A stretch of DNA of 32,952 nucleotides, from assembly GCA_016936215.1 (NCBI GenBank), contig JAFGPL010000046.1:1-32952 (forward strand), given 5' to 3'. Positions 26,178 through 32,952 of this stretch are shown piece after piece (position 1 is the stretch's first letter; each line of letters starts with the position of its first letter). This DNA is from Bacteroidales bacterium. Lineage in GTDB: Bacteria; Bacteroidota; Bacteroidia; Bacteroidales; UBA10428. The notes beneath the pieces are model-generated. The model worked only from the letters and a program-made list of their open reading frames with translations. It had not been told where the DNA came from and made no database searches. A program made the translations under genes and the position numbers.

Positions 26178-26194
26178 GAGGGGGGAAGGAAGAC

Positions 26195-26260
26195 CTTAGG
26201 CGATAGGCTTTAGGCCTTTAGGCGTTAGGCCATAGGCTTTAGGCCTATTGGCCTTTAGGG
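26195..26260. repeat. Degenerate heptamer array, consensus nwTAGGC
   Basis: Nine consecutive 7-8 bp units: CTTAGGC, GATAGGC, TTTAGGC, CTTTAGGC, GTTAGGC, CATAGGC, TTTAGGC, CTATTGGC, CTTTAGGG. It starts 18 bp after the selD stop. Such short tandem repeats resemble the heptameric arrays described in cyanobacteria and are not a CRISPR. Confidence 0.75.
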
Positions 26261-26325
26261 AAAGAGAAAAGGGTTTCGGGTTGCGGATTCCGGGATTCAG
26301 TTCCTTCCATGTGCCGGTATTCACT

Positions 26326-26353: not shown

Positions 26354-26534
26354 AAATTAATCTACATTAATGATTGATAAATTTCTGAAAAGCTAATGCC
26401 GTAGAGGTCATTATTCATACCTTAAAACATATCGTTGAGTATGGCTAAAAACTCCACAAACAAACCTGGACAGGTTGATTAGCAAAACATTGTTGATAAA
26501 TATTTTATAATTACTTCGCGATTGGCATAACCTA

Positions 26535-26570
26535 TTTGTATAAATTTTTATAGATTTATACATAAGTTTA
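26535..26570 (+). promoter_or_regulatory. Candidate Bacteroidota promoter with operator-like inverted repeat for the cas region
   Basis: TTTG at 26535-26538 and TAAGTTTA at 26563-26570 approximate the -33 TTTG and -7 TAnnTTTG boxes, though the 24-nt spacing is a few bases long. An 8-bp perfect inverted repeat, GTATAAAT/ATTTATAC (26538-26545 and 26554-26561), lies between them. It precedes the cas3-like remnant and cas3. Confidence 0.3.
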
Positions 26571-26597
26571 GGCCATTTAATCCAAAACGCACTAAAA

Positions 26598-26699
26598 ATG
26601 GAATACCTGGCACATTCGAAAAACCTGCCCGACAAAGGGCACAACCTTAAAAAACATTTATTATATGTTGCATGGGTGATGGTGGCATATAATATCTAA
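26598..26699 (+). pseudogene. Remnant of a second cas3 N-terminus
   Basis: This 33-codon ORF begins MEYLAHSKNLPD and continues LKKHLLYVA before running into unrelated residues and a stop. Cas3 proteins commonly start with (E)Y(I/L)AHSKN...LK.HL..VA, the helix leading to the HD domain; the complete cas3 19 bp downstream starts KEYIAH...LKSHLEQVA. DNA similarity between the two is low, so it is not a recent duplication but looks like the start of a different cas3 lineage, cut off at residue ~25. It could instead be a chance or leader peptide. Confidence 0.45.
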
Positions 26700-26718
26700 A
26701 AATAGAACTTACTATTTT

Positions 26719-29178
26719 ATGAAAGAATATATTGCCCATATACGTCAACAAAACGATACCAAAGATATCCAGTCATTAAAAAGCCACCTTGAACAAGTGG
26801 CAAAAAACGCATCTGATTATGCTTCAAAAATCGGATTATCAAAAGCCGGTGAATTAATCGGTTTGTTACATGATTTTGGCAAATATAGTGAGGCTTTCCA
26901 AAAATATATTGCTTCTGCTACTGGTATAATTGATCAGGATGCGGACGATTATGTGGATGCAGCCGGATTAAAAGGGAAAATTGACCATTCAACTGCCGGT
27001 GCAAAATTAATTTGGAACATAGTAAAAAACGACACTCCTCAGAAACAAGCAATATTTCAATTACTCGCTTTGTGTATAGCCTCTCATCATTCAGGTTTAA
27101 TTGATTGTCTGACAATTGAAGGCGAAAATACCTTTGAGAAACGAATGGACAAACCTGATGAAAGATGTCATTTAACCGAGATAACAGGCAAAGTAGAAGA
27201 TGGGTTACTTAAAAGAATTGACAACTTGCTTGCTGATGGTGAACTTGTTAACGAGCTTGTTGGTTTGTTGAAATTAATAAACCATAATAATAGCAATGAT
27301 ATTCTTAAAAGGTTTCATGCAGGCCTGGCTGCCCGTATGCTATTCAGTTGCCTTATTGATGCTGACCGCACAGATACGGCAAACTTCGAGAACCCCAAAC
27401 ATGCAAGGCTGCGCCAAGATGGTAATTTTGTTGGATGGGACGTGTTAATTGACCGATTAGAAAGAAAATTGCATGATTTTGAAAATAAACCGGATAAAAG
27501 CCCGATAGATGGTATCAGGAAAAAAATATCTGATGCTTGCTTAACAAGGGCTTGTGATGAAACAGGGGTTTTTACACTTACCGTTCCGACCGGAGGGGGA
27601 AAAACTTTATCCAGCCTTCGGTTTGCTTTGCACCATGTAAAAAAACACCAGCTTGACCGAATTATTTTTGTAATACCCTATACCTCGATTATTGACCAAA
27701 ATGCCCGTGTTGTGCGCGATATTTTAGAACTTGACAAGAGAGATAAGGGCAAAATTGTATTGGAACATCATTCGAACCTCTTGCCTGAATTACAAAGCTG
27801 GAGAACTAAAATTCTTTCAGAAAATTGGGATGCACCCATCATTTATACCACAAGTGTACAGTTTTTGGAAACACTCTTTAGCGGGGGAACCCGTAGTGCA
27901 AGGCGTATGCACCAATTGACCCGTTCGGTAATTGTTTTTGACGAAATACAAACATTGCCCATTAAAACCACCCATTTGTTTTGTAATGCCATTAACTTTT
28001 TAACCAACCATTGCCGATCAAGTGTGGTTTTATGCACGGCCACGCAACCGCTGTTAAATAAAGTAAATGAAGAAAAAGGTTGCATCAGGTTTTCTGAGAA
28101 AAATGAAATTATGCCCGATGTAGCAAAACTTTTCGATAAATTAAAAAGGGTTGAGGTCATAAACAAAATCAAACCGACCGGATGGGAAAATCAGGAGATT
28201 GCCCAATTAGCCATCGAACAGGTCGGTGAAAGCTTGAGTTGCCTCATAATTGTGAACACAAAGAAAAATGCACGCGAGATATATGAAGCACTTTCCAATT
28301 ATACTGATAATCAGGTTTTTCATTTGAGTACCAGTATGTGCCCGGCTCACCGCATGGAAAAACTCAATCAAATTCGCAGGATGCTTGAATCTGACGAAAC
28401 ATTAATTTGTGTGAGCACACAATTAATCGAAGCCGGGGTTGATGTAGATTTTGGGTCGGTAATCCGCTTTGTTGCAGGTATTGACTCAATTGTACAGGCA
28501 GCAGGACGGTGCAATAGAAACGGTAAAAGAGCTAGTGGAAAAGTGTTTGTAGTAAATCCAAAAGACGAGAATATTGATACTTTGCACGACATTAAAATTG
28601 GAAGGGATATCAGCAACCGTATTTTAAACGAGTTGAATAATCCACAGGCAAACTTGCCCGATGACCTGATCCATCCCTCAATAATGGAACGGTATTTTCA
28701 ATATTATTTTTATAACAGGGCTGGGGAAATGTCATATTCTGTTGATGTTGGGCGTGATGATAATTTACTGAACCTGTTGAGTGTAAACTCCTTTTCGGTT
28801 AGCGAATACAAGCGGATAAACGATCAGGAACCTAAAATCTTTTTTAGGCAGGCTTTTAATAAAGCAGGTGAAAGTTTCAAAGCCATTGATGCCCCCACAC
28901 AGGGTATTGTGGTGCCTTATTCCGACAAAGGACAAAAAATTGTTGCCGGATTATTCTCGCAATTTGCTGTGGAACAACAGTACAAGCTTTTAAGAGATGC
29001 CCAGAAATATACAGTTAACGTTTTCCCAAATGTGATTAAAAAACTTGCAGAACAAAAGGCAATTCGCGAAGTTCCTGAAATTGGCGTATTGGTATTGGCC
29101 GATCCCCGCTATTACCACCCACAATTTGGCTTAGACACCGAAATTAAAACAGAATACGAAACCTTAATAAGTGATTAA
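26719..29178 (+). CDS. cas3: CRISPR-associated nuclease-helicase Cas3 (type I-C)
   Basis: 819 residues with the fused HD-helicase order. HD nuclease: His51-Asp52 in LLHDFGK (Lys55), His90 in KIDHSTAGAK, and His123-His124 in ASHHSG. Superfamily 2 helicase: Walker A TGGGKT at 291-296, DEIQ at 408-411, TATQP at 440-444, and motif VI QAAGRCNRNG at 593-602. All key residues are present, so it should unwind and degrade target DNA after Cascade recruitment. It is the first gene of a compact operon with cas5c, cas8c and cas7, which is the type I-C order. The ATG at 26719 matches the family N-terminus (EYIAH). Confidence 0.96.
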   Translation: MKEYIAHIRQQNDTKDIQSLKSHLEQVAKNASDYASKIGLSKAGELIGLLHDFGKYSEAFQKYIASATGIIDQDADDYVDAAGLKGKIDHSTAGAKLIWNIVKNDTPQKQAIFQLLALCIASHHSGLIDCLTIEGENTFEKRMDKPDERCHLTEITGKVEDGLLKRIDNLLADGELVNELVGLLKLINHNNSNDILKRFHAGLAARMLFSCLIDADRTDTANFENPKHARLRQDGNFVGWDVLIDRLERKLHDFENKPDKSPIDGIRKKISDACLTRACDETGVFTLTVPTGGGKTLSSLRFALHHVKKHQLDRIIFVIPYTSIIDQNARVVRDILELDKRDKGKIVLEHHSNLLPELQSWRTKILSENWDAPIIYTTSVQFLETLFSGGTRSARRMHQLTRSVIVFDEIQTLPIKTTHLFCNAINFLTNHCRSSVVLCTATQPLLNKVNEEKGCIRFSEKNEIMPDVAKLFDKLKRVEVINKIKPTGWENQEIAQLAIEQVGESLSCLIIVNTKKNAREIYEALSNYTDNQVFHLSTSMCPAHRMEKLNQIRRMLESDETLICVSTQLIEAGVDVDFGSVIRFVAGIDSIVQAAGRCNRNGKRASGKVFVVNPKDENIDTLHDIKIGRDISNRILNELNNPQANLPDDLIHPSIMERYFQYYFYNRAGEMSYSVDVGRDDNLLNLLSVNSFSVSEYKRINDQEPKIFFRQAFNKAGESFKAIDAPTQGIVVPYSDKGQKIVAGLFSQFAVEQQYKLLRDAQKYTVNVFPNVIKKLAEQKAIREVPEIGVLVLADPRYYHPQFGLDTEIKTEYETLISD

Positions 29179-29179
29179 T

Positions 29180-29971
29180 ATGGATACACCAAAAAACAGC
29201 ATTCAGTTTAAAGTGTGGGGCAGGTACGCCCTATTTACCGACCCCATAACTAAAATGGGGGGCGAACGATGTTCGTACCATATCCCCACTTACGAGGCGC
29301 TCAAAGGAGTGGCAAAATCTATTTACTGGAAACCCACCCTGGTATGGCACATTGATAAAGTGCGCATTATGAAACCAATACGGACACAAACAAAAGGGAC
29401 TAAACCATTAAATGAAGGTGGTATTTATCCAAGTGAGAAAGAACCAGGTAAAAAGCAAAAAGCATTTAATGACTTGGCTATTTACACTTACTTAGTTGAT
29501 GTTGAATACCAGGTTTTAGCTCATTTTGAGTGGAACATGTACCGTCCCAAACTGACAAATGACCGTATTGATGGCAAGCATTTCCAGATAGCGCAGCGTA
29601 TGCTCGATCGCGGTGGCCGACAGGATATTTTCCTCGGCACCCGCGATTGTCAGGGCTATGCCGAACCTTGCCAATTTGGAGAAGGGAAAGGTCAATACGA
29701 CGATATAGAAGAAGTCAGTTATGGGTTAATGTTCCACAGCTTTGGTTACCCCGATGAAACCGGAGAAGACAAACTAATTACCCGGTTTTGGCGTCCGGTG
29801 ATGAAAAACGGGGTAATTGATTTTACCCGCACCGATGATAAAACCAACATAATTAAAGAGGTACGCCCCATGAAAGCCAAAAAGTTTGGAGAAGGCATCA
29901 ACTTAAAAGTTGTTGAAACTGAATTTAAAGAATTAATCCTTCAAACCGGCGGGGAGGACGGCGCGTTATGA
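29180..29971 (+). CDS. cas5c: CRISPR-associated protein Cas5c/Cas5d, pre-crRNA endonuclease
   Basis: 263 residues from the ATG at 29180, one base after the cas3 stop; a GTG at 29171 would add three residues and an 8-bp overlap. The protein runs FKVWGRYALFTDPITKMGGE, PTYEALKGVAKSIYWKPT, then DGKHFQIAQRML and GGRQDIFLGTRDCQGY, all typical of Cas5d. The catalytic triad known for Bacillus halodurans Cas5d (Tyr46, Lys116, His117) corresponds here to Tyr49, Lys133 and His134. It therefore probably cleaves pre-crRNA in place of Cas6 and caps the crRNA 5' handle in Cascade. The stop overlaps the cas8c start (ATGA). Confidence 0.95.
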   Translation: MDTPKNSIQFKVWGRYALFTDPITKMGGERCSYHIPTYEALKGVAKSIYWKPTLVWHIDKVRIMKPIRTQTKGTKPLNEGGIYPSEKEPGKKQKAFNDLAIYTYLVDVEYQVLAHFEWNMYRPKLTNDRIDGKHFQIAQRMLDRGGRQDIFLGTRDCQGYAEPCQFGEGKGQYDDIEEVSYGLMFHSFGYPDETGEDKLITRFWRPVMKNGVIDFTRTDDKTNIIKEVRPMKAKKFGEGINLKVVETEFKELILQTGGEDGAL

Positions 29972-31836
29972 GCTGGATAGAAGAATTGTATAGAACGTAT
30001 GATTATTGCAGTAATGTTGACGATGGGCCGACTCCTCCTTATCACATGAGAAACAATACGCATATTGAAATTAGGATAGATGGAAATGGAAATTTCATAG
30101 GTGCAAAATTAGATAAGTTAAAAAACACCATTATTCCGTGTACAGAAAAATCTGAGGCTGCAAGGACAATGAATCCGCCTGCCCACCCTTTATGTGATAA
30201 AATCCAGTTTGTCGCAGGCGACTATAAAGGCTCAAAGACTTCGTATTTCGATAAATATATTCAAATATTGGAACAATGGTCAGAATCTGAATTTTCGCAT
30301 CCAATGGTAAAGGCAATTTACACTTATACACAAAAACGATGTTTGATTGAAGATTTACGATTGTATGAGGGTAACATTCTAAGCATAGACGAAGATCCGG
30401 CTGATTTATTTGTTCGCTGGTGTGTGGAAATACCCGGAGAGAATGAAACACGTACGTGGAAATGTAAATCATTGTATAAAAGCTGGCAAGACTTTTATGA
30501 AGGTCAAGAATCGCTTAAAGGCTTATGCATGGTTAGAGGAGAAAAAATGGTTCTTGCCCTTAATCATCCTAAACGTATTCGTCATGGTGGCGATGGGGCA
30601 AAACTTATATCTTCTAATGACAAATCCGGGTTTACCTTTCGTGGAAGGTTTACAACAAATGAGGTATTGATTGATGGAAAGAAATCAGAAATTGCCATTC
30701 AATCTGCTACCATCAGCGCCGAGGTGTCCCAGAAGGTTCACAGGGTTTTAGGCTGGCTTATCGAAAAACAGAGTTACAGAAACGGCGACCAGGTTATTGT
30801 TTCCTGGTCAGTAACCGGCGAAGAAAAACCAAACGAATTTTCTGATACAAACACTTTGTTTGGCGATAGCGATGAAGAGAAAATTGCTGAACTAAATACC
30901 CATTCACCACACGATGCCGGTCAGACTTTTGCCCAAAAATTATCAAAGAAAATTGCAGGGTACAGGGCTTCGTTAACCGATGCAAAGAAGATAGTGGTGA
31001 TGGGACTGGACTCGGCTAACCAAGGTCGTATCTCTATAACATACTATCGCGAACTGGCTGGTTCTGAGTTTCTCGACAGGGTTGAAAAATGGCATTCAGA
31101 TATGGCGTGGCATTTTTATGAATTTATTCAGGATCCGAAGGAAAAAAAGAAAAAACATTCGGGTCATATTGTGTATGCCCCTGCCCCGCGGGTTATTGCT
31201 GAGTCATGTTTTGGGAAAAGACTGGATGATAAACTTAAAAAATCGACCACTGAAAGGCTTTTGCCGTGTATAATAGATGGAAGGCAAGTTCCTGAAGACT
31301 TGGTGAATATGGCTATAAAAAGAGCTTCGAACAAAATTGGTATTGACCATTGGGAATGGGAAAGAACTCTTAGTGTAGCCTGTGCGCTATATAGTTGTCA
31401 ACTAATTAGAAAAAACAATAACAATAAAATTCAAAAAATCATGGCTTTAGAAAAACAACGTACCGACAGGGACTATTTGTTTGGCCGGCTTTTGGCCGTT
31501 GCCGAACATCTTGAAGAAATTGCCCTGAATGTGGCAAAGGAACCTCGTGAAACAACTGCTGCCCGATTAATGCAACGTTTTGCCGATTTTCCATACTCCA
31601 CCTGGAGAACCATAGAATCTTCACTTGTACCATATAAGTCAAGGTTAAATGCTAATCGTCCGGGATTTCTTGTGAACATGAAAAATCTTATGGATGAGAT
31701 TCATACAATGTTTTTACCAGGTGATTTTGAAAACGACAACAGGCTTTCCGGGGCATATTTACTTGGTTATCATTGTCAAAGATTTGAACTAAAAGCAAAA
31801 AAAACAATTGAAGAAGTAACAACAATTAATTCTTAA
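29968..31836 (+). CDS. cas8c: CRISPR-associated large subunit Cas8c (Csd1)
   Basis: 622 residues, the usual length for Csd1/Cas8c. The N-terminus is SWIEELYRTYDYCSNV. A central AKKIVVMGLDSANQGRISITYY strand set and a C-terminal helical part (~490-622) follow. Position, length and motifs match the type I-C large subunit, which recognises the PAM and recruits Cas3. The ATG overlaps the cas5c stop by 4 bp, indicating translational coupling. The C-terminal helical region also carries a likely internal start for Cas11c. There is no sign of frameshift or truncation. Confidence 0.93.
   Translation: MSWIEELYRTYDYCSNVDDGPTPPYHMRNNTHIEIRIDGNGNFIGAKLDKLKNTIIPCTEKSEAARTMNPPAHPLCDKIQFVAGDYKGSKTSYFDKYIQILEQWSESEFSHPMVKAIYTYTQKRCLIEDLRLYEGNILSIDEDPADLFVRWCVEIPGENETRTWKCKSLYKSWQDFYEGQESLKGLCMVRGEKMVLALNHPKRIRHGGDGAKLISSNDKSGFTFRGRFTTNEVLIDGKKSEIAIQSATISAEVSQKVHRVLGWLIEKQSYRNGDQVIVSWSVTGEEKPNEFSDTNTLFGDSDEEKIAELNTHSPHDAGQTFAQKLSKKIAGYRASLTDAKKIVVMGLDSANQGRISITYYRELAGSEFLDRVEKWHSDMAWHFYEFIQDPKEKKKKHSGHIVYAPAPRVIAESCFGKRLDDKLKKSTTERLLPCIIDGRQVPEDLVNMAIKRASNKIGIDHWEWERTLSVACALYSCQLIRKNNNNKIQKIMALEKQRTDRDYLFGRLLAVAEHLEEIALNVAKEPRETTAARLMQRFADFPYSTWRTIESSLVPYKSRLNANRPGFLVNMKNLMDEIHTMFLPGDFENDNRLSGAYLLGYHCQRFELKAKKTIEEVTTINS
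31441..31836 (+). CDS. cas11c: Cas11c small subunit from an internal start in cas8c
   Basis: Met492 of cas8c (ATG at 31441) begins MALEKQRTDRDYLFGRLLA and would give a 131-residue helical protein sharing the cas8c stop. In studied type I-C systems the small subunit Cas11c is made from an internal start in cas8c at about this place and size. The leader before the ATG is A-rich (an AAAA-containing run within 15 bp), the usual favourable context in Bacteroidota. Other internal ATGs are further downstream (MQRF, MKNLM) and would give shorter products. Confidence 0.5.
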   Translation: MALEKQRTDRDYLFGRLLAVAEHLEEIALNVAKEPRETTAARLMQRFADFPYSTWRTIESSLVPYKSRLNANRPGFLVNMKNLMDEIHTMFLPGDFENDNRLSGAYLLGYHCQRFELKAKKTIEEVTTINS

Positions 31837-31849
31837 TAATTTATACACT

Positions 31850-32719
31850 ATGGCAACATTAGAAAATAAAATTGATTTTGCAGTAATACTGCGCGCTACA
31901 AAAGCAAACCCCAATGGTGATCCCCTCAATGGAAACCGTCCCCGGATGGATTACGACGGATATGGGGAAATGAGTGATGTATGCATCAAGCGCAAAATCC
32001 GTGACCGTCTTATGGAAGCAAAAGATGATAACGGTAATTATAAGTATTCCATTTATGTACAAAGTGATGAACGTAAAGTTGATGATGCAAAAAGCCTAAA
32101 AGACAGGGCTGACAAAGCACTCAAGGATAATTTGACATTGGAGAGTGCATGTAAACAATGGTATGATGTACGAGCTTTCGGGCAAGTGTTTCCATTTAAA
32201 GCCAAAGAAACCAAAAAAAGTAAAGACGAAGATAAGAGTGATACTGGTGGTGATACTGGAATATCTATTCCCGTTCGCGGGCCGGTTACAATTCAATCAG
32301 CATTTAGTATTGAACCCATCCGTCCCGAAAGCCTTCAAATCACTAAGAGTGTAAATACAGAAACCACAACCGATGGAAAAAAGAGTTCAGATACCATGGG
32401 CATGAAACATCGTGTTGACAAAGCTGTGTACGTATTTTATGGCAGTATAAACCCCCAACTGGCCGAAAAAACAGGTTTTTCAAACAAAGATGCCGAAGCC
32501 ATAAAAACGGTTTTACCCAAGCTGTTTGAAAACGATGAATCATCTGCCCGCCCTGCCGGCAGCATGGAAGTTTTAAAAGTTTTTTGGTGGGACCATGGTT
32601 GTAAAGCTGGTAAATATTCATCGGCCAAAGTACATAATTCTTTAAAGGTTAATCCTGATGGAAGTTTTACGATTAATGAATTGGAAAATCTAAAACCAGA
32701 AATAATTGATGGATTTTAA
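31850..32719 (+). CDS. cas7: CRISPR-associated backbone protein Cas7 (Csd2, type I-C)
   Basis: 289 residues. The N-terminus IDFAVILRATKANPNGDPLNGNRPRMD is the Csd2/Cas7 signature, followed by SDVCIKRKIRDRL. ISIPVRGPVTIQSAFSIEPI and a DTMGMKHRVDKAVYVFYGSINP strand are typical. It forms the six-to-seven-copy crRNA-binding backbone of Cascade. A Lys/Glu-rich insertion lies at ~117-131 (KKSKDEDKSD). It is 13 bp downstream of cas8c and 11 bp upstream of a RhuM-type gene. In standard type I-C loci cas4, cas1 and cas2 would follow. Confidence 0.95.
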   Translation: MATLENKIDFAVILRATKANPNGDPLNGNRPRMDYDGYGEMSDVCIKRKIRDRLMEAKDDNGNYKYSIYVQSDERKVDDAKSLKDRADKALKDNLTLESACKQWYDVRAFGQVFPFKAKETKKSKDEDKSDTGGDTGISIPVRGPVTIQSAFSIEPIRPESLQITKSVNTETTTDGKKSSDTMGMKHRVDKAVYVFYGSINPQLAEKTGFSNKDAEAIKTVLPKLFENDESSARPAGSMEVLKVFWWDHGCKAGKYSSAKVHNSLKVNPDGSFTINELENLKPEIIDGF

Positions 32720-32730
32720 TACTTTCTTTA

Positions 32731-32952
32731 ATGAAAAAACAAAAAATTGACCCTAAAGATAGGTTCAACGAAATCATTCTCTATACCACTCCGAACCAAA
32801 AGGTTAAAGTGGAAGTATTATTACAAAATGAAACCATTTGGCTAACCCGGCAAAAAATTGCCGATTTGTTTGGCGTTGAACGCAGTGTTGTAACAAAACA
32901 TCTTCGAAACATCTTTCAATCAAATGAATTACAGGAAGGTTCAGTATGTGCA
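32731..32952 (+). CDS. RhuM-family protein, 5' part only
   Basis: The visible 74 codons read RFNEIILYTTPNQKVKVEVLL, then ETIWLTRQKIADLFGVERSVVTKHLRNIF and ELQEGSVCA, the N-terminal pattern of the RhuM (Virulence_RhuM) family. The helix-turn-helix-like segment R-Q-K-I-A-D-L-F-G-V is clear. The frame is open at the window edge. It begins 11 bp after cas7, suggesting cotranscription with the cas operon. The biochemical function of RhuM is not established; such genes are often found in accessory and defence regions. Whether cas4, cas1 and cas2 follow cannot be seen. Confidence 0.85.
   Translation, partial: MKKQKIDPKDRFNEIILYTTPNQKVKVEVLLQNETIWLTRQKIADLFGVERSVVTKHLRNIFQSNELQEGSVCA

What the first reader, a model, noticed from the sequence alone, without database searches (positions are those of the whole stretch)
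26598..26699. Apparent remnant of a second cas3 lineage directly upstream of cas3
A 33-codon ORF has the common Cas3 start (YLAHSKN...LKKHLLYVA) and stops before the HD histidines, 19 bp upstream of an intact cas3 that starts with the corresponding but clearly diverged helix. This suggests that an older cas3, perhaps of another type I subtype, was replaced by recombination or insertion at its own 5' end, leaving its leader and promoter to drive the present operon.
Basis: partly seen in the sequence, partly recalled or inferred. Interest (0 to 1): 0.65.

Follow-up and report, generated by a model that had tools for sequence, protein, structure and literature searches.

The report
Leftover start of an older cas3
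A tiny gene in front of a bacterial CRISPR operon is the leftover first piece of an older, different cas3 gene, and the same kind of leftover turns up in front of CRISPR operons in other bacterial groups, which suggests that immune operons are swapped in behind the old gene's start.

Summary
The 33-codon ORF at 26598-26699 begins like a Cas3 and stops before the HD motif, 19 nt before an intact type I-C cas3. It matches a profile of five intact "AHSKN-type" Cas3 N-termini at E = 2.5e-6, with no shuffle close. That lineage occurs intact in the same bacterial family (G015), and a counterpart ORF lies 43 nt before a cas3 in another genus. It is best read as the 5' remnant of a second cas3 lineage, still type I-C.

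It is not unique. Foreign Cas3 tips directly precede 10 of 121 intact cas3 entries; a second phylum adds at least six loci. They are N-terminal, on the same strand, 2-58 nt from the new cas3, overlapping it or fused to it. Another tip precedes a type I-F operon. Two pairs of loci show tips that follow the local lineage while the cas3 behind is more alike, which suggests operon exchange with the left crossover inside the resident cas3's 5' end. That the old promoter drives the new operon is inferred. Whether the window's ORF has a function now is open.

The parts
26598..26699 (+). 33-codon ORF, 5' remnant (tip) of an AHSKN-type I-C cas3
26700..26718 (+). 19-nt spacer between the remnant's stop and the cas3 ATG
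26719..29178 (+). intact cas3 of another I-C lineage, 819 aa
29171..29971 (+). cas5c
   Evidence: TIGR01876 7e-68
29968..31836 (+). cas8c/csd1
   Evidence: TIGR01863 5e-110
31850..32719 (+). cas7/csd2
   Evidence: TIGR02589 4e-91
26400..26597 (+). DNA before the remnant, presumed to hold the older cas3's promoter (inference)
   Evidence: no shared promoter motif or significant flank similarity with G009 was found

Best explanation
The ORF is the retained 5' end of a resident cas3 of a different I-C lineage. A foreign cas3-cas5-cas8-cas7 operon was joined within the first few dozen codons of that gene and the rest of the resident cas3 was lost, so the incoming cas3 now starts 19 nt behind the truncated resident frame. 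Shown: the ORF's kinship to another Cas3 clade, an intact member of that clade in the same bacterial family, no further copy of that cas3 found in the genome, and the same architecture in 16 further loci. Inferred: that the resident promoter and start region now serve the incoming operon, perhaps with translational coupling, and that such junctions spread by homologous recombination with the left crossover in the conserved 5' end of the resident cas3.
For: Nearest Cas3 N-termini of the ORF are the AHS(K/E)N-type L228, L214, L012, L011; the adjacent cas3 ranks 14th of 129. Lineage profile E = 2.5e-6. Intact AHSKN-type cas3 (724-aa frame) in G015, same family. Searches of the own genome with the window's cas3 gave two matches, C106 and C142, neither of this type. 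Counterpart in G009 43 nt before a window-type cas3. tblastn of 24 Cas3 proteins on up to 6 kb before 121 intact cas3 entries: nine loci with a piece in the last 610 nt, each beginning at residue 1-10 of its best-matching Cas3, plus the window by profile. Replication in another phylum. In the other tested tips the adjacent cas3 ranks 29th-104th. L280/L281: tip dS 0.34, adjacent first 150 cas3 codons dS 0.04. L176/L177: tips closest to intact genes of their own sublineage.
Against: The ORF is short; the general profile alone gives E = 0.0079 and the tblastn test misses it. The five-member profile was chosen after seeing the resemblance. Promoter use is untested, and no promoter motif or flank similarity shared with G009 was found. 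No genome with the same flanks and the intact older cas3 was found; the intact and remnant loci lie in different genera. The genome is a 332-contig assembly, so the missing remainder could be unassembled. Recombination as the means of spread rests on two pairs, neither including the window.
Confidence: 0.78

Rival explanations
1. The ORF is now a maintained small gene: a leader peptide coupled to cas3 translation, or a micropeptide that mimics the Cas3 N-terminal helix and tunes Cas3. It may have started as a remnant and been recruited.
For: Window and G009 ORFs end at nearly the same length (33 and 31 aa), 19 and 43 nt before cas3, without internal stops. Codons 1-25: pS 0.81, pN 0.27, so changes are mostly synonymous.
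Against: The same signal arises if both genes diverged as intact cas3 and were cut later, as L280/L281 show (tip dS 0.34, dN 0.073 before a nearly identical cas3). In the cas3 tree G009 lies outside the set of window, L037, L038, L052 (95/91), of which L052 shows no tip in 700 bp, L038 another tip, and L037 none in the 108 bp held. The spacers of window and G009 are not more alike than shuffles (772 of 1000 reach the value).
Confidence: 0.13
2. The ORF is a tandem duplicate of the start of the adjacent cas3 that has diverged.
For: Both are Cas3 N-termini in the same frame direction, 19 nt apart; 11 of 24 aligned residues identical.
Against: Thirteen of 129 Cas3 N-termini are closer to the ORF than the adjacent one, the closest all of the AHS(K/E)N form; in L038, L051, L070, L077, L109, L214 and L011 the tip is plainly of another clade.
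Confidence: 0.03
3. Chance: a random ORF that happens to resemble a Cas3 start.
For: It is short and the general profile alone gives only E = 0.0079.
Against: E = 2.5e-6 with the lineage profile and no shuffle close, a counterpart in the same place in G009 found with the ORF alone (E = 1.4e-5), and recurrence elsewhere.
Confidence: 0.01

Closest known systems
5' cas3 remnants after loss of the cas genes in Salmonella, type I-E (PMC3356390; passages and Table 3 seen)
   Same: A 5' piece of cas3 is what remains of a former cas operon.
   Different: There the other cas genes are deleted from the last CRISPR1 repeat into cas3, nothing replaces them, and the listed remnants run from 2,622 bp down to 303; here an intact foreign cas operon follows and the tips are mostly 31-80 codons.
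Replacement and loss of whole cas operons in Escherichia and Salmonella (PMC2886076, passages seen; PMC5359238, one passage seen)
   Same: cas loci are gained, lost and exchanged at one place; cas3 pseudogenes can be the only relic.
   Different: No junction of a foreign cas operon inside a resident cas3's first codons is described in the passages I saw.
Type I-C CRISPR-Cas operon (cas3-cas5c-cas8c-cas7)
   Same: The present operon is an ordinary I-C effector module by family models.
   Different: It is preceded by a foreign cas3 tip, and no cas4-cas1-cas2 follows cas7 before the contig ends.

Membership tests
Cas3 N-terminus, AHSKN-type I-C lineage (the ORF) | N-terminal AHSKN motif and first helix ending HLxxVA | tested here: met
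   profile E = 2.5e-6, shuffles; nearest Cas3 N-termini
Cas3 N-terminus, AHSKN-type I-C lineage (the ORF) | HD motif and helicase of a working Cas3 | tested here: not met
   the ORF stops at codon 33, before the HD motif: a remnant, not a Cas3
Type I-C CRISPR-Cas operon (26719-32719) | cas3, cas5c, cas8c/csd1, cas7/csd2 in this order | tested here: met
   NCBIfam and Pfam models
Type I-C CRISPR-Cas operon (26719-32719) | cas4-cas1-cas2 and a repeat array | not tested
   the contig ends at 32952 in an ORF after cas7; arrays were not searched for
Scar of operon exchange at the cas3 5' end | tip of another cas3 clade directly before an intact cas gene set | tested here: met
Scar of operon exchange at the cas3 5' end | same flanks with the intact older cas3 in a relative (empty-site comparison) | not tested
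   no such genome found; intact AHSKN-type cas3 in the family only in G015, another genus
Functional leader ORF | conservation of the ORF as a unit and effect on the downstream gene | tested here: inconclusive
   low pN/pS to one homologue only, which later truncation also explains; effect not testable here

The most novel reading that the evidence does not exclude
The 5' end of cas3 is a recurrent exchange site of type I loci. Incoming cas operons, sometimes of another subtype, are plugged in behind the resident cas3's promoter and first codons; the left crossover tends to fall in the conserved stretch up to the HD motif, and the resident tip stays as expression leader. In some lineages, perhaps the window's, that tip has become a maintained leader ORF.
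Probability: 0.35. Interest if true: 0.72.

Novelty: new variant of a known kind. Interest (0 to 1): 0.5.

Why it matters
CRISPR-Cas loci are known to be replaced often, but how a new operon lands where it is expressed is rarely visible. These scars fix one junction of the exchange nearly to the codon and show which lineage was there before. They suggest a testable rule: the left crossover falls in the first codons of the resident cas3, so the newcomer may inherit a working promoter and start region. They also warn annotators that a short Cas3-like ORF before a cas operon can be a relic of the previous system.

Tried and rejected
Tandem duplication was set aside and chance was rejected. Another subtype as donor was not supported for the window: the AHSKN-type cas3 whose neighbours were tested, L214, is followed by cas5c and a partial cas8c match. 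The ORF pair as a profile against 395 genomes of the phylum gave no third short copy that I could confirm; the best hits were a frame with stops (4.2e-4) and the intact L214/G287 cas3 (8.8e-4). IMG/VR gave no relative of the ORF pair and three distant ones of the cas3. tblastn of the G009 ORF on plasmids gave nine weak hits (E 0.3 to 6): seven on annotated cas3 or Cas3'' genes, two with no listed gene. No shared promoter motif and no significant flank similarity between window and G009 (17 of 300 shuffles reach the upstream score, 772 of 1000 the spacer score). Exact donor-side junctions could not be read from related upstream regions, which are too diverged. Low dN/dS as proof of a functional short ORF was rejected, because L280/L281 give the same signal otherwise. 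Rows dropped: four of the 80 loci (L058, L073, L098, L105: no N-terminus in the match); entries without a recognisable intact N-terminus were left out, and of the 121 kept, 109 have 610 nt or more upstream and 47 have 4.5 kb or more. Literature searches (open-access papers only) listed no paper that I recognised as reporting a foreign cas3 tip before an intact cas operon; apart from passages of five papers I saw listings only.

Full report
What is there. The window carries a 33-codon ORF at 26598-26699, then 19 nt, then a complete cas3 (26719-29178), cas5c, cas8c and cas7: a type I-C effector operon. The ORF is too short for Pfam or NCBIfam.

Is the resemblance real? A profile of 78 Cas3 N-termini (the window's cas3 among them, the ORF not) was run over up to 700 bp before cas3 in 78 loci, 75 of them with at least 90 bp. 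Six frames had E < 0.01, all on the cas3 strand: L070, L051, L038, L077, L109 and, weakest, the window (0.0079). The next had 0.57; the best in 189 kb of far-upstream control DNA had 0.11. With a profile of five intact AHSKN-type N-termini that excludes the ORF, the ORF has E = 2.5e-6 among 1,323 frames; its bare 33 residues score 25.7 bits against at most 7.3 for 5,000 shuffles, 4,861 of them scored. The five were chosen after I had seen the resemblance, so this figure flatters. Found with the ORF alone, G009 has E = 1.4e-5.

Which lineage? Among 129 Cas3 N-termini the ORF's best partners are L228, L214, L012 and L011, all of the form AHS(K/E)N; the cas3 right behind it ranks 14th. An intact AHSKN-type cas3 (724-aa frame) is present in G015, one of 23 genomes of the family searched. 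L214 shows such a cas3 followed by cas5c (TIGR01876 1e-33) and a partial cas8c match, below its cut-off because the stretch is cut. Searches of the own genome with the window's cas3 gave two matches, the window's and one on C142 of a third type; the Cas3 N-terminal profile gave those two and a weaker one in a 527-aa frame on C297 that I did not identify. The remainder of the AHSKN gene was thus not found in this 332-contig assembly.

A counterpart in another genus. G009 has MEYIAHSKNNSGEFHNLKEHLMGVAKIMEGL (31 aa), ending 43 nt before a cas3 of the window's type that is itself broken by a frameshift and then by the contig end. Codons 1-25 of the two ORFs have pS 0.81 and pN 0.27: selection on the short ORF, or divergence while both were still intact genes. 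In the cas3 tree the window groups with L037 (100/99), then with L038 and L052 (95/91), and G009 lies outside. L052 shows no tip within 700 bp, L038 a different one, and L037 none in its 108 bp. Spacer and flank similarity between window and G009 is not significant. One event or two cannot be told.

Recurrence. Up to 6 kb before each of 121 locus entries with an intact cas3 (349 kb; 109 entries have 610 nt or more and 47 have 4.5 kb or more; at least one genome, G406, is held twice) was searched with 24 full-length Cas3 proteins by tblastn. Nine loci have pieces in the last 610 nt: L011, L038, L051, L070, L077, L109, L176, L177, L214. Each best match begins at Cas3 residue 1-10; L176 and L177 also show a short continuation of the tip in a second frame (residues 83-94 of the query). 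The window is missed by this test and counted by profile: 10 of 121. The only other piece, in L079, lies 3.8-4.9 kb upstream (residues 237-613 of the query). For the tips other than the window's, the adjacent cas3 ranks 29th-104th of 129. L214 is the mirror image of the window: a window-type tip 9 nt before an AHSEN-type cas3.

Replication. In 297 genomes of the phylum of L051's genome, 65 have a Cas3 N-terminus at E <= 1e-8, and seven show a short frame and an intact cas3 in tandem: G799 (L051 again), G848, G1060, G940, G817, G908, G1057. I fetched the six new pairs and nine other genomes with short frames (16 regions), not the upstream DNA of all 65, so this is a lower bound. One search confirms L280-L284; L285 (G1057) is a longer piece over 1 kb away and is not counted; L287 is added, a tip before a cas3 with cas5c behind it. 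Seventeen loci thus have a Cas3 tip directly before a cas3: the window, G009, L038, L051, L070, L077, L109, L176, L177, L214, L011, L280-L284 and L287. Two more have a tip before another operon: L178 (Cas1f, Cas3f and Csy1 of type I-F) and L286 (a Cas5c-like gene below its cut-off, an unassigned 686-aa ORF, and a Cas3-like ORF further down).

Anatomy. Gaps from the tip's stop to the new start codon are 2, 2, 9, 15, 19, 28, 30, 43, 46 and 58 nt (L281, L280, L214, L070, window, L283, L282, G009, L011, L051); in L038, L077, L284 and L287 the frames overlap; L109, L176 and L177 are in frame with the new cas3. Tip frames run from 31 codons to 192 (L011). Five of the 19 end within three codons after the HDLGK of the HD motif (L051, L070, L280, L281, L178), L280 and L281 sharing one junction; I did not test whether that exceeds chance. 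In L176 and L177 no ATG, GTG or TTG lies between the resident's ATG and the incoming YYAHS; in L109 an in-frame ATG lies within the fused stretch, so there the new protein could start later.

How it moves. L280 and L281 share a junction; their tips differ at dS 0.34, dN 0.073, while the first 150 codons of the cas3 behind differ at dS 0.04, dN 0.006 (whole cas3: 0.09 and 0.020), and identity rises to 29-30 of 30 from about 50 nt before the new ATG. The Chlorobium-like pair L176 and L177 (genus name is my inference) break at the same codon, but each tip is closest to intact genes of its own sublineage (161 and 158 of 174 nt) rather than to the other (135 of 174); the new cas3 differs at dS 0.62 against 1.25 in the tip. 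The simplest reading is recombination with its left crossover inside the resident cas3's 5' end: a local tip in front of a travelling operon. It also accounts for low dN/dS in tips without a present function.

Known background. Salmonella strains that lost their cas genes keep a 5' remnant of cas3, with deletions from the last CRISPR1 repeat into cas3 and remnants listed from 2,622 bp down to 303 (PMC3356390, passages and Table 3 seen). An E. coli case likewise ends at a repeat (PMC5359238, one passage), and cas3 pseudogenes as sole relics are noted in PMC2886076 (passages). I recognised no report of foreign cas3 tips before intact operons in the listings (open-access papers only).

Verdict. 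Present function of the window ORF is open; I put a maintained leader at about one in eight.

Noticed in passing
L176, L177, L179-L192, L195 (Chlorobium-like genera g101 and g106): cas3 is split inside its HD domain: a short ORF with the HD motif ends just behind the ATG of a second frame beginning MGKIDHSSAGA or similar (overlap 14 or 8 nt). The ATG is there in 17 of 17 loci looked at; the second frame is 693-732 codons stop to stop in 10, the others being cut by contig ends, fused to a new cas3, or differently broken. Programmed frameshift or re-initiation; no paper held all of the terms cas3, frameshift, Chlorobium and CRISPR.
   Followed up: partly
five loci: L051, L070, L280, L281, L178: Tips end within three codons after HDLGK of the HD motif, in loci from different phyla. 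Possibly a crossover hot spot in the conserved codons; not tested.
   Followed up: no
window 26182-26302: Degenerate intergenic repeat (TTAGGCCTTTAGGC-like); 17 other places in the genome match it at E <= 0.001.
   Followed up: no
window 32731-32952: After cas7 comes an HTH-containing ORF (RhuM-like, from recall; Pfam gives only weak HTH hits) instead of cas4 before the contig ends; in the related L038 the ORF after cas7 looks like a REP-type transposase (recall).
   Followed up: no
L022 (G000:C142): The genome holds a second I-C-like cas3-cas5-cas8 start (38 percent identical cas3), preceded by a regulator-like ORF (WYL type from recall).
   Followed up: no
L245:5001-5339 (NZ_AP019787.1): A lone 112-aa Cas3''-like ORF (TIGR01596 4e-13) on a Methylomagnum plasmid, overlapping the end of a SprT-type gene beside a type I restriction system, with no other annotated cas gene on the record.
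   Followed up: partly
L291: A 288-aa cas3 5' frame followed by an unrelated ORF and then cas4 and type I-C cas1: the middle of the operon is missing.
   Followed up: no
L286: A 50-aa-frame Cas3 tip before a cas5c-like gene, an unassigned 686-aa ORF and a Cas3-like ORF further down; possibly a divergent type I operon.
   Followed up: no
L030, about position 370 (minus strand): The cas3 behind the G009 tip is broken by a frameshift at a run of A; sequencing error or real mutation cannot be told.
   Followed up: no
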